Notes under the pieces: model-generated
Database searches by the model: none
The model's input: only the letters and a program-made list of their open reading frames with translations
What the model was told of the DNA's origin: nothing
Translations under genes and position numbers: made by a program
Assembly: GCA_027309085.1 (NCBI GenBank)
Contig: DAIDDL010000043.1
Coordinates: 1-34,211, forward strand
DNA: 34,211 nucleotides
Direction of reading: 5' to 3'
Source of the DNA: Sulfobacillus sp.
GTDB taxonomy: Bacteria > Bacillota > Sulfobacillia > Sulfobacillales > Sulfobacillaceae
In this document: one piece after another, positions 31,827-34,211 of the stretch
Layout: each line of letters opens with the position of its first letter
How positions within the stretch are numbered: the first letter of the stretch is position 1

Positions 31827-32456
31827 GTGCAGCGGATTCCTGATGCAGCTATCCGGCGTCTGCCGGCATATTTGCGGTGGTTGACCGAATGCCAAGAAGA
31901 ACGCGTGACTTCGGTGATTCTGGGACAGGCCACCGGATATTCATCAGAGCAAGTGCGTAAGGATTTGGCCTATTTCGGGGCGTTTGGGACTCGCGGGGTC
32001 GGTTATGATGTCCTGGCCCTGCGTGAGGAGATTTACCGGATCCTGCGGCTTGACCGCGGGGTGCGGGCCATGGTGGTGGGCGCAGGCCATTTAGGCACAG
32101 CGCTTGTCCGGTATGTGGCCCAAGGGCACCAGGACGTGCAGATTATGGCGCTCTTGGATAGCAACCCTGAGATTATTGGGGTGCAGGTCGGGTCATTGCG
32201 GGTGGAGTCTGTAGAGCGGCTGGAAGACATTGTCCGTGAACTGGGCATCGGAATTGCCGTGCTGGCAGTGCCTAAAGAAGCGGCCGTGCCGGTGGCAGAC
32301 CGTCTGGCGGAGTGCGGGGTCCGCGCCATTCTAAATTTTGCGCCGGTGGCGGTGTGCACCCGTTATCCGGAGGTTTTTGTGCAGCCCATTGACCTGACCC
32401 TCGAACTGCAGGCGCTATCGTACTTTGTGGGGCAGCGGGAACGGCATTCTCTATGA
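31827..32456 (+). CDS. rex: Redox-sensing transcriptional repressor Rex
   Basis: A dimeric repressor that binds DNA when NADH is low relative to NAD+ and releases it when NADH rises. The 209 aa is the family length. The N-terminal winged helix (about 1-76) contains SSEQVRKDLAYFGAFGTRGVGYDV, and the Rossmann domain begins AMVVGAGHLGTAL with the GxGxxG at 85-90, followed by LLDSNPEIIG. The GTG at 31827 follows AGAAGGAG; a longer frame from 31575 only overlaps the synthase gene. It lies 31 bases after hepT and overlaps the EamA gene, so it is probably co-transcribed with both. Likely targets include the adjacent nuo promoter, by inference. Confidence 0.96.
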   Translation: MQRIPDAAIRRLPAYLRWLTECQEERVTSVILGQATGYSSEQVRKDLAYFGAFGTRGVGYDVLALREEIYRILRLDRGVRAMVVGAGHLGTALVRYVAQGHQDVQIMALLDSNPEIIGVQVGSLRVESVERLEDIVRELGIGIAVLAVPKEAAVPVADRLAECGVRAILNFAPVAVCTRYPEVFVQPIDLTLELQALSYFVGQRERHSL

Positions 32457-33328
32457 ACCGGCGCGCTTTTTACTACAGCATGGGGCTGGTGGTTCTGAGC
32501 TGGGGACTCAATTATGTCATTACCAAAATCGGCGTCGGGCATTTCCCCCCCGCCGATTTTGTGTTCTGGCGCTTCCTGGCCACCACGCTCGTAGCCGTGC
32601 CCTGGATGGTCCGGCAGTATCCCGCCAGCTGGGCTGCAGCGGTCCAGCTGGCGGTGTTGGGACTGACCGGGGTGACCCTCTACCAGCTGGCCTTTACGAC
32701 CGCCCTTCACGACACTCTGGCGGCCAATGTCGCATTTTTGTTTGACCTGTCGCCGCTGATGACACTAGTCGGGCAAAGGCTTCTGCACATGCGGCCCTCA
32801 GGTCGGCAGATGTTTGTGGGAGCAGCAATTTCACTTGTGGGAGTGCTCCTCCTCGTGGGCGCATCAGCGGGCGGGTCCCTGACAGGGGACGGGTTTGCTT
32901 TGCTGGCTGCCTTTCTGTGGGCCGTGTTCACCGTGCTTACCGACCGCTTTCACCTGCCTATTTCCGGGGTGGCCCTTACCGGCTGGATGAGCCTTTTTGG
33001 GACAATCGGAGTGCTGCCCTGGATGACTTGGCGCCATCTGGTGCCGCAAGGACTCGGCGTGTGGGGACCGCTGGCGTACACCGTGGTATTTGTGACCGTC
33101 ATGGGGCTCTCTTTGTGGCAGAATGCAGTGATGGCCGTCGGGGGCGGCAAGGCCAGTCTCTACCTCTACATCATTCCCGTCATTGCCGCGGCCGCGGGCT
33201 GGGTCATCCTCGGGGAAGCTCTGAGTCTCCTGGAGGGGGCCGGAGCTCTCCTTATTATAGCGGGAGTGGCCGTTGCGGAGGGGATATGGCGGTACCGTCC
33301 GCCCAGCAAGCGTCCAGCAGCAGACTAG
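32453..33328 (+). CDS. EamA/DMT superfamily transporter
   Basis: A 291-aa permease of the drug/metabolite transporter superfamily with about ten TM helices in two EamA repeats. Repeat one spans about 8-135 (LSWGLNYVITKIGVGHFPPADFVFWRF is typical); repeat two spans about 147-280 (ends YLYIIPVIAAAAGWVILGEALSLLEGAGALLIIAGV). The start overlaps the rex stop as ATGA. Substrate cannot be predicted: the family exports amino acids, metabolites or drugs. It ends 12 bases before the convergent mazF remnant, with no obvious terminator between. Confidence 0.9.
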   Translation: MNRRAFYYSMGLVVLSWGLNYVITKIGVGHFPPADFVFWRFLATTLVAVPWMVRQYPASWAAAVQLAVLGLTGVTLYQLAFTTALHDTLAANVAFLFDLSPLMTLVGQRLLHMRPSGRQMFVGAAISLVGVLLLVGASAGGSLTGDGFALLAAFLWAVFTVLTDRFHLPISGVALTGWMSLFGTIGVLPWMTWRHLVPQGLGVWGPLAYTVVFVTVMGLSLWQNAVMAVGGGKASLYLYIIPVIAAAAGWVILGEALSLLEGAGALLIIAGVAVAEGIWRYRPPSKRPAAD

Positions 33329-33340
33329 GCTCGGGTAGGG

Positions 33341-33668
33341 TTACATAAACAAAGGGATCAAATCGAGACATTGAGCCACTAATTCGTTGGGGACGCGTCC
33401 TTTTATTTGCAAGTAAAGAGCTTTCCAATCTAAGCTCTTCACTTGGTCTGTTAAAACAACTCCTTGAAAAACGAGTCCCTTCGGGAGAAGGACCTCGAAG
33501 GGATATCCTTTTTGTTGATGAGTGATAGGACAGACAACGGCAAAACCCGTGACCGTGTTAAAGTTTTTGGCGACAAAACTATCGCCGGGCGCGTACCAGC
33601 CTGTTCGTGTTCCAATTGTGGATTAAAATTCATGTAAACAGATCGCCTTGGTCGGGCGTAACGGTCAC
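33341..33668 (-). pseudogene. mazF: mazF-type toxin gene, broken by two single-base frameshifts
   Basis: Reading the minus strand and changing frame twice restores a typical MazF/PemK endoribonuclease. The order is TPDQGDLFT, then a shift near 33633, MNFNPQLEHEQAGTRPAIVLSPK, then a shift near 33561-33568. After that come FNTVTGFAVVCPITHQQKGYPFEV, GVVLTDQVKSLDWKA and the end at TAA 33341-33343. The original start was probably the GTG at 33666-33668, overlapping the mazE TGA. As it stands no full toxin can be made. Each break is explained by the loss of one base in a short homopolymer. Genuine decay is likely, because all other genes in 33 kb are intact, but sequencing error is not excluded. 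Confidence 0.85.
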
Positions 33669-33897
33669 AGCAACTCATTCCCTTCGACGCCCCAATCAAT
33701 TTCACTGTGACGATTCTCCGGGTAATTTTGCTTAACAAGTCTTCCAAGGTGAATTCCTTCTTTTTAACGGTTAAGATAATGCTATCTGTTGCGTGCCATT
33801 CTAATTCCGTTCCTTGGTCGATTGCAGCTGCTTCGATTACGGAGTGCGGTATACGAATCGCGAGACTGTTGCCCCATTTGTGAACAGTGGTGCCCAC
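33665..33897 (-). pseudogene. mazE: mazE-type antitoxin gene with a frameshift near its end
   Basis: AbrB/MazE swapped-hairpin antitoxin. The first 59 residues are intact and include VHKWGNSLAIRIPHSVIEAA and WHATDSIILTVKKKEFTLEDLL, the DNA-binding part. After KIT the frame shifts at the C run 33720-33722. Adding one C restores PENRHSEIDWGVEGNELL and a TGA that overlaps the mazF start. That tail is the toxin-binding region in this family, so the present product, which runs on in the wrong frame to 33451, could still bind DNA but probably not toxin. It starts with GTG after GGGGGAG. Confidence 0.85.
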
Positions 33898-33914
33898 AGC
33901 AACTCCCCCTTTTT

Positions 33915-33945
33915 GTGCTATGGTGATACCCTGCTACGATAGCAC
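33915..33945 (-). repeat. Inverted repeat in the mazE leader
   Basis: GTGCTAT (33915-33921) and ATAGCAC (33939-33945) are inverted copies with a 17-base loop that holds a further small palindrome, GGTGATACC. It lies just before the mazE ribosome site and may be an operator half of this autoregulated locus or a leader hairpin. Confidence 0.4.
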
Positions 33946-33960
33946 CACACTTTCGCTTGT

Positions 33961-33981
33961 TGTATATACATGGGATATACA
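33961..33981 (-). promoter_or_regulatory. Operator-like palindrome upstream of mazE
   Basis: TGTATAT (33961-33967) and ATATACA (33975-33981) are perfect seven-base inverted arms seven bases apart, 64 bases before the mazE start. MazE-MazF complexes repress their own promoters through such sites, so this is the likely operator/promoter area. No clear -35 was found. The rest of the 33898-34121 gap holds nothing else I recognise. Confidence 0.45.
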
Positions 33982-34123
33982 CGTCCCGTAGAAACGATAC
34001 CTATCAGCCACCCAATTTTTATTCGAGATTGTCGGCATTATTGGGGTCCCGCCAGCAAAACGCAGATGTACAACGGTGGGTTAATCTGGCAATTAGTTTG
34101 GGTCGTCTATTCTTAACGGTCCT

Positions 34124-34154
34124 GAACCTCCCCCCGGCTAAAGCCGGGGGGTTC
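34124..34154. repeat. GC-rich hairpin typical of an IS200/IS605-type element end
   Basis: CCCCCCGGC (34130-34138) pairs with GCCGGGGGG (34143-34151) around TAAA, with GAACC and TTC outside allowing further pairing. This CCCCCCGGCTAAAGCCGGGG form is, from memory, very common at the right ends of IS1341/IS605 elements and in the 3' part of their omega RNAs. It has no T run on the plus strand. Confidence 0.65.
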
Positions 34155-34211
34155 TAAAAACCTCTACCGTCACACTCTCATCGGCTCTCGCTCCCACTTG
34201 CGCAAGAGTTA
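34138..34211 (-). CDS. Possible C-terminus of a TnpB-type protein (partial, runs off the window)
   Basis: One minus-strand frame is open from the window edge to a TAG inside the hairpin loop (34138-34140), giving 23 residues that include TLAQVGARADESVTVEVF. TnpB genes often end inside this hairpin, and their variable tails look like this. None of the RuvC or zinc-finger motifs fall in the window, so this is only a suggestion. A second frame ending at NSCASGSESR is an alternative tail. Confidence 0.3.
   Translation of the reverse strand, partial: TLAQVGARADESVTVEVFRTPRL

What the first reader, a model, noticed from the sequence alone, without database searches (positions are those of the whole stretch)
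34103..34211. IS200/IS605-type right end with an identifiable would-be guide sequence
If the GC-rich hairpin is the 3' end of an omega RNA, the 16-20 bases directly after the element end on the minus strand (about 34103-34122, starting GGACCGTTAAG) are the guide that a resident TnpB nuclease would use. It would then target empty copies of this very site. The element's core is just outside the window.
Basis: partly seen in the sequence, partly recalled or inferred. Interest (0 to 1): 0.5.

Follow-up and report, generated by a model that had tools for sequence, protein, structure and literature searches.

The report
Jumping-gene end carrying an RNA guide
The window stops inside the right-hand end of a small bacterial jumping gene of a well-known kind (IS200/IS605), whose guide RNA would read the DNA next to it as an address, here the tail of another, unrelated jumping gene; it is a clear new example of a known system rather than a new one.

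Summary
The window is the end of a contig (C110) that breaks 90 bases inside a repeated element. The genome has nine near-identical copies of this end, each followed by different DNA after a shared ...GGTTCAG. The window already holds the last 23 codons of tnpB (34138-34209, minus), with the stop codon at the hairpin loop. Related copies show a Y1 tnpA, a tnpB with invariant D/E/D residues, and left ends inserted after TTAC. A 150-nt structure ending at the hairpin shows changes on both sides in 21 of 39 pairs, as expected of an omega RNA. The left half of this insertion lies on contig C11, and an uninterrupted paralog on C13 (...CATTTAC|GACCGTTGCGAATAG...) fixes both ends. It reads the last codons of a Tn3-family transposase gene. 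The only other site in the genome within 3 mismatches (TTAC plus 16 bases) is the C13 paralog, mismatched at guide positions 8 and 9. Cleavage is inferred, and the C11 side shows a broken tnpB. New member of a known kind.

The parts
34122..34211 (-). Right end (RE) of an IS200/IS605 (IS608-like) element, cut by the contig end; last base of the element is 34122
   Evidence: 9 near-identical copies with divergent flanks; boundary fixed by the empty-site paralog on C13
34138..34209 (-). 3' end of tnpB: last 23 codons (TLAQVGARADESVTVEVFRTPRL) and TAG stop, the stop lying at the loop/stem edge of the hairpin
   Evidence: translation; same tail ends the 307-aa frame on C82, and similar tails end the full-length tnpB frames on L079 and L153
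34124..34154 (-). Terminal hairpin of the RE / 3' end of the omega RNA scaffold; GAAC (right guide tetranucleotide for TnpA, by analogy with IS608) at its 5' foot
   Evidence: 96.5-100% paired in 16 aligned ends (helices 5 and 6); covariance model hit C110:34124-34155, E 4e-6; IS608 code in PMC5934647
34122..34125 (-). TCAG right cleavage site (C_R; IS608 has TCAA)
   Evidence: invariant in 9 of 9 own copies; pairing with GAAC by the IS608 rule is inference
34102..34121 (-). Would-be omega RNA guide, 20 nt: GACCGTTAAGAATAGACGAC
   Evidence: first bases outside the element in the empty-site alignment
34043..34121 (-). Right end of a Tn3-family transposon remnant: last codons of the transposase gene (34093-34121) and terminal inverted repeat (34043-34080)
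   Evidence: alignment to C13, whose ORF is a Tn3 transposase (PF01526 E 5e-145, NF033527 580 bits, cutoff 500); IR-like copies on C13, C77, C130, C81

Best explanation
The window ends inside the right end of an IS608-like IS200/IS605 insertion sequence (tnpA Y1 + tnpB, about 2.1 kb). It inserted after TTAC in the 3' end of a Tn3-family transposase gene. By the known mechanism, TnpA recognises the end hairpins on single-stranded DNA, cleaves after TTAC and TCAG, and leaves no target duplication. The 3' part of the tnpB transcript folds into a roughly 120-150-nt omega RNA that ends at TTCAG and runs on into the flank. Its first bases (GACCGTTAAGAAT...) would guide TnpB to TTAC-flanked copies of the empty site, favouring retention or re-entry of the element. 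Shown here: element type, both boundaries, tail of tnpB, conserved RNA structure in related copies, guide sequence, empty paralog. Inferred: transcription, processing, TnpB loading and cleavage.
For: Nine copies with one sharp boundary. tnpB frame running into the RE. Y1 TnpA: PF01797 1.3e-44 and NF033573 on the C11 copy; of 8 distinct tnpB-bearing relatives checked, 5 carry an uninterrupted full-length TnpA homolog, 1 an interrupted one, 1 a remnant, 1 none found. TnpB: PF07282 and NF040570 above cutoff in 3 of 3. D254/E361/D439 invariant in 9 of 9 (their reading as the RuvC triad is from recalled motifs). Foldseek rank 1 is ISFba1 TnpB and rank 2 another TnpB-omegaRNA complex (8h1j), E 3e-11 and 7e-11. 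TTAC at 6 of 6 intact left ends of this subfamily in the own genome. Complete 2111-bp copy with TTAC and TTCAG ends. Empty site TTAC|GACCG on C13, with contiguous alignment across the junction. Covariation: 93.7% of cells paired versus 79.9% shuffled, 82 double-change cells versus 29.6, 0 of 500 shuffles reach any measure, slid controls 39-52% paired. RNA model hits (E<=0.001) in 24 of 34 family genomes. Two places in the own genome match TTAC plus 16 guide bases within 3 mismatches: the C13 paralog and the window itself, whose TTAC is replaced by TCAG; reversed control 0.
Against: The copy in the window is cut, so only 90 bases of it are seen. The left-end contig C11 carries a tnpB that breaks after about 115-119 residues into 93 bases that are 94% identical to C161:77094-77186, so this insertion may lack a working tnpB or be rearranged. 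The C13 target has mismatches at guide positions 8, 9, 17 and 20. The zinc motif is CxC, and PF01385 (OrfB_IS605) is not matched by 3 of 3 TnpBs at E<=0.1. The RNA matches no Rfam family at gathering in the window. The structure was derived from the same 16 related sequences on which it was scored, which inflates the controls. TnpB similarity to solved TnpBs is weak by sequence (E 0.005), and the fold model is moderate (pLDDT 59, TM 0.34-0.36 on the query for the two best; Cas12f chains follow from rank 3). Left ends without TTAC exist: G001 C78 reads TGAC, the 84%-similar C129 end in the own genome reads TTAT.
Confidence: 0.86

Rival explanations
1. A decayed right end: the element is as described, but this copy (and perhaps the whole family in this genome) no longer makes a functional TnpB or guide RNA; the hairpin persists only as a TnpA-recognised DNA end. 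This overlaps with the best explanation on anatomy and differs on present activity.
For: tnpB broken on the left-end contig. Only one tnpB region (C82, itself cut at the contig start) matches at E<=1e-20 in the own assembly. The C83 copy is a solo right end.
Against: The tail of tnpB is open in the window and the same in C82. D/E/D intact in C82. Copies are 98-99% identical to the window's, so spread looks recent. Covariation upstream of the hairpin extends beyond the hairpin that TnpA would need.
Confidence: 0.4
2. An IS607-family element (serine recombinase plus TnpB) rather than IS200/IS605.
For: On C83 the same right end sits about 500 bases from the remains of a tnpB (PF12323) that follows a serine-recombinase tnpA (PF00239).
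Against: The C83 tnpB breaks off before the right end, and PF12323 is not matched by the TnpBs joined to this right end. Complete copies with these ends carry Y1 tnpA. TTAC target, AAAG and GAAC guides and absence of a target duplication fit Y1 elements.
Confidence: 0.02
3. An ordinary rho-independent terminator unrelated to transposition.
For: GC-rich hairpin; such stems also occur in 4 of 20 shuffled windows.
Against: On the tnpB (minus) strand the hairpin is followed by GGTTCAG, not a T run. It sits at the edge of a nine-copy repeat and at the end of a transposon gene.
Confidence: 0.02

Closest known systems
IS608 (Helicobacter pylori), IS200/IS605 family
   Same: Y1 TnpA, TTAC left target, AAAG left guide tetranucleotide before the LE hairpin, right guide and cleavage site fitting the same pairing (GAAC/TCAG here, GAAT/TCAA in IS608; PMC5934647 passages), tnpB present
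   Different: Right cleavage site TCAG not TCAA; tnpA and tnpB overlap on one strand (divergent in IS608, recalled); tnpB of about 540 aa whose 3' end overlaps the omega RNA
ISDra2 TnpB / reRNA (Deinococcus radiodurans)
   Same: Guide RNA from the right end running into the flank, TAM equal to the insertion target (PMC8612924 passages); fold matches 8exa and 8bf8
   Different: TAM TTGAT there, TTAC expected here; zinc CxC; 16% identity in those fold alignments
ISFba1 TnpB-reRNA (8iaz)
   Same: Best fold and best sequence hit among solved structures
   Different: E 0.005 by sequence; 384 aa against about 540 aa
Non-autonomous IS200/IS605 derivatives (MITE- or PATE-like; names recalled)
   Same: Short TTAC...CTCAG elements without tnpA or tnpB were found in a same-genus genome
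   Different: Those keep the omega-RNA-like structure by the RNA model; the window element belongs to the tnpA-tnpB form

Membership tests
IS200/IS605 (IS608-like) | Y1 HUH transposase TnpA | tested here: met
   PF01797 E 1.3e-44, NF033573 152.8 bits (cutoff 55) on the C11 copy; uninterrupted homolog in 5 of 8 tnpB-bearing relatives; HVH and IKQY motifs read (motif names recalled)
IS200/IS605 (IS608-like) | Insertion 3' of a fixed short target, no target duplication | tested here: met
   TTAC at 6 of 6 intact left ends of this subfamily in the own genome and at the divergent C112 end; empty site TTAC|GACCG without duplication. Exceptions: C94 and L079 left ends truncated, G001 C78 TGAC, divergent C129 TTAT
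IS200/IS605 (IS608-like) | Subterminal hairpins with guide tetranucleotides matching the cleavage sites | tested here: met
   AAAG/TTAC at LE and GAAC/TCAG at RE by reading against the IS608 sequences; TnpA binding not tested
TnpB (RNA-guided endonuclease) | RuvC catalytic D, E, D | tested here: met
   Invariant at D254, E361, D439 in 9 of 9 aligned; assignment to RuvC by recalled motifs
TnpB (RNA-guided endonuclease) | Family profile | tested here: met
   NF040570 110.6, 118.4 and 105.2 bits against cutoff 100 in 3 of 3 TnpBs; PF07282 above cutoff in 3 of 3; PF01385 not matched in 3 of 3
TnpB (RNA-guided endonuclease) | CX2C zinc ribbon | tested here: inconclusive
   CxC...CxC in 8 of 9, first pair CX2C in L171
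TnpB (RNA-guided endonuclease) | Omega RNA at tnpB 3' end, ending at the RE | tested here: met
   Covariation on 16 ends; the window itself covers only the last 90 nt; expression not tested
TnpB (RNA-guided endonuclease) | Guided cleavage next to the TAM | not testable with these tools
   No experiment possible
IS607 | Serine-recombinase TnpA in the element | tested here: not met
   Complete copies with these ends carry Y1 tnpA

The most novel reading that the evidence does not exclude
In these bacteria the guide-bearing ends have partly uncoupled from the nuclease gene. Many right ends, and short gene-free TTAC...CTCAG elements that keep the omega-RNA-like structure, would act as stand-alone guide genes for a TnpB made elsewhere. 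The window's end would be one such guide, aimed at a Tn3-family transposon, so that one mobile element polices another.
Probability: 0.2. Interest if true: 0.55.

Novelty: new member of a known kind. Interest (0 to 1): 0.33.

Why it matters
It gives a well-specified case from natural sequence: guide, expected TAM, empty paralog in the same genome and a conserved guide-RNA structure are all identified, so TnpB targeting of another transposon's gene can be tested directly. The RNA matches no Rfam family at gathering in the window, and its model finds relatives in 24 of 34 genomes of the bacterial family.

Tried and rejected
IS607 membership was my first reading, from C83, and was dropped when complete copies showed a Y1 tnpA. 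The terminator reading was rejected (repeat edge). Rfam gave no match at gathering for the window, and only four hits far below their gathering scores on a relative's end. Window 32900-34121 searched in 8 genus genomes (own included) gave no empty site in the 7 others, only matches within the first 391 bases of the query, almost wholly inside the ORF at 32453-33328. The guide plus TAM searched in 34 family genomes gave the two own-genome places and one 3-mismatch hit in G006; the reversed-pattern control also gave 3 hits, so the G006 hit is chance level. One AlphaFold model was moderate (pLDDT 59) and used only for fold ranking. The paper search for Sulfobacillus with TnpB found 0 papers in the held library; searches were seen as listings, and of these papers I read passages of PMC5934647, PMC8612924 and PMC10278001 and the outline and abstract of PMC11870625.

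Rows dropped before counts: one search used 16 right ends. Alignment A1 used 9 of them (L061, L079, L153, L157, L080, L158, L096, L082, L083) and 7 new ones (L162, L163, L164, L171, L178, L182, L183). Left out of A1: the window and L060 (contig-cut, 90 and 86 nt), L155, L159, L084, L071, L074 (indels or more distant), the other contig-cut own copies, duplicates of loci already in (such as L161, L165, L166, L172, L175, L187), and the first of two ends on L178. TnpB alignment A2 left out matches with stops or truncation, and L165 as a duplicate of L153.

Full report
WHAT IS THERE. The window is contig C110 of a 4.49-Mb, 172-contig genome, and its last base is the contig's last base. On the minus strand the end reads ...TTTTTAGAACCCCCCGGCTTTAGCCGGGGGGAGGTTCAG|GACCGTTAAGAATAGACGAC. 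The hairpin is stable (z -2.85; 2 of 200 shuffles as good), though such a stem alone is not rare (4 of 20 shuffles). Counting the window, nine copies of this end exist in the genome; the eight others align over 76-91 bases at 98-99% identity. In all nine the shared sequence ends with GGTTCAG, after which column agreement drops from 0.89-1.0 to 0.33-0.56. The contig stops 77 bases upstream of the single base that only this copy has, and five other contigs stop 75-77 bases inside the element; I read this as an assembly break in a repeat.

THE ELEMENT. Contig C82 continues upstream of the same end into an open frame of 307 aa that ends in the hairpin. The window holds its last 23 codons and the TAG (34138-34209). 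A same-genus genome (G001; its contig matches Sulfobacillus benefaciens PXYT01000069.1 in length and at 100% protein identity) has a 94% identical region with a 551-aa tnpB frame and an overlapping tnpA, although its left end has been replaced upstream of tnpA. A complete copy of 2111 bp lies in DAHXNH010000250.1 (L153:3023-5133), with TTAC on the left, TTCAG on the right and both frames open. The C11 TnpA is Y1 (PF01797, NF033573). Of 8 distinct tnpB-bearing relatives, 5 have an uninterrupted full-length TnpA homolog (L079, L153, L162, L163, L164), L080 has one with stops, L171 a remnant, and none was found on L178. TnpB scores above NF040570's cutoff in 3 of 3 and matches PF07282 but not PF01385. 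D/E/D residues read as the RuvC triad are invariant in 9 of 9 proteins, including C82; zinc cysteines are CxC in 8 of 9. The AlphaFold model (pLDDT 59) ranks ISFba1 TnpB first and a second TnpB complex (8h1j) next in the PDB, followed by Cas12f chains, with TM 0.34-0.38 on the query over the first eight.

BOUNDARIES AND THE EMPTY SITE. Left ends of this subfamily in the own genome start TTAC|CAAAACAGGGCGTAAAGCCCCGG...: 6 of 6 intact ones carry TTAC (C11, C44, C163, C88, C124, C99), as does the more divergent C112 end. Against this, C94 has a truncated left end and one G001 copy (C78) reads TGAC, and the 84%-similar C129 end reads TTAT. C11's left flank and the window's right flank align side by side and without gap at the junction to one uninterrupted stretch on C13...GTTAGACCATTTAC|GACCGTTGCGAATAG... 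(84.6% over 214 bases on the left, 72.1% over 86 on the right). So the two contigs very probably carry the two sides of one insertion, the element ends at 34122, there is no target duplication, and the guide begins at 34121. The C13 gene is a Tn3-family transposase (PF01526 5e-145). The window's 34043-34080 is a Tn3-type terminal repeat with similar copies elsewhere. The C11 remnant of the transposase already has an internal stop.

END CODE. IS608 has AAAG and TTAC at the left, GAAT and TCAA at the right (passages of PMC5934647). Here AAAG precedes the left hairpin and GAAC precedes the right one, with TTAC and TCAG as cleavage sites. On my reading this keeps the pairing rule, including the fourth position, and independently supports TTCAG as the end. 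That TnpA uses these is inference.

THE RNA. Sixteen right ends of 124-150 nt were aligned. The consensus has four helices upstream of the terminal hairpin. Of 39 pairs, 21 show changes on both sides; 93.7% of cells pair against 79.9% in shuffles and 39-52% when slid; 0 of 500 shuffles reach any of the five measures. The structure was predicted from the same related sequences, so these controls are generous. The terminal hairpin itself varies little (1 of its 12 pairs has a double change), so the case for RNA rests on helices 1-4. The window shows only the 3' 90 nt of this region. A covariance model finds matches (E<=0.001, rough calibration) in 24 of 34 genomes of the bacterial family and 9 of 11 genera. 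No Rfam family matches the window at gathering. TnpB is known to cut its own mRNA into the guide RNA (abstract and passages of PMC10278001), and the insertion target is known to serve as TAM (passages of PMC8612924).

WHAT THE GUIDE WOULD DO. TTAC plus the first 16 guide bases, with up to 3 mismatches, occurs twice in the genome: on C13 (2 mismatches) and in the window itself, where TCAG replaces TTAC (reversed control 0). Over the 20-nt guide C13 differs at positions 8, 9, 17 and 20. As ISDra2 TnpB is reported to use about 12 guide bases (passage in PMC10278001), C13 would probably be a poor target. The effective target is the donor site after excision, or empty sister copies, as in the reported retention and gene-drive models.

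WHAT IS NOT SETTLED. C11's tnpB breaks after about 115-119 residues into 93 bases that are 94% identical to C161:77094-77186, just before the contig end. This copy may therefore be rearranged or lack its own TnpB. The copies are too alike for the assembly to say how many complete tnpB genes remain.

VERDICT. A well-supported new member of the IS200/IS605-TnpB kind, with its guide, expected TAM and empty site identified. Ordinary in kind, useful as a defined test case.

Noticed in passing
L209:2159-2516 (minus), L210:1818-2176 (plus), L211:1994-2352 (minus); same-genus genome G004: Elements of 358-359 bases: TTAC|left-end hairpins ... omega-RNA-like structure ... CTCAG followed by a different flank in each. 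Three of four copies examined have the TTAC left end (L212 does not). No tnpA or tnpB hit in these loci of 2.4-4.5 kb, and G004 has no match to the queried TnpB at E<=1e-20.
   Followed up: partly
L203, L204, L205, L206, L207 (genome G016): A second repeat ending GAAT...hairpin...TCAA, near-identical apart from small indels in five places with different flanks, matched by the RNA model but with no tnpA or tnpB hit of the tested types in loci of about 4.5-5 kb.
   Followed up: partly
L003:1501-1590 (C83:65822-65911): A solo right end of 86 bases, preceded exactly by TTAC where the full element reads TAAC; possibly a minimal mobilised end.
   Followed up: no
L010:about 1493-1530 (C86): A 38-base palindrome in which the right-end hairpin has two matching outer arms (CTGAACCTCC...GGAGGTTCAG), like a folded-back copy of the end.
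   Followed up: no
window:33451-33897 (minus): MazE antitoxin and part of a PemK/MazF toxin in one frame (PF04014, PF02452), which looks like a degraded toxin-antitoxin pair; 33340-33639 has an 82% copy on C146.
   Followed up: partly
L056 (C83:65911-67604): IS607-type serine-recombinase tnpA with an N-terminal piece of a different tnpB, broken, beside the solo right end; further 88-91% fragments on C83, C158, C140, C87, C93 and C5.
   Followed up: partly
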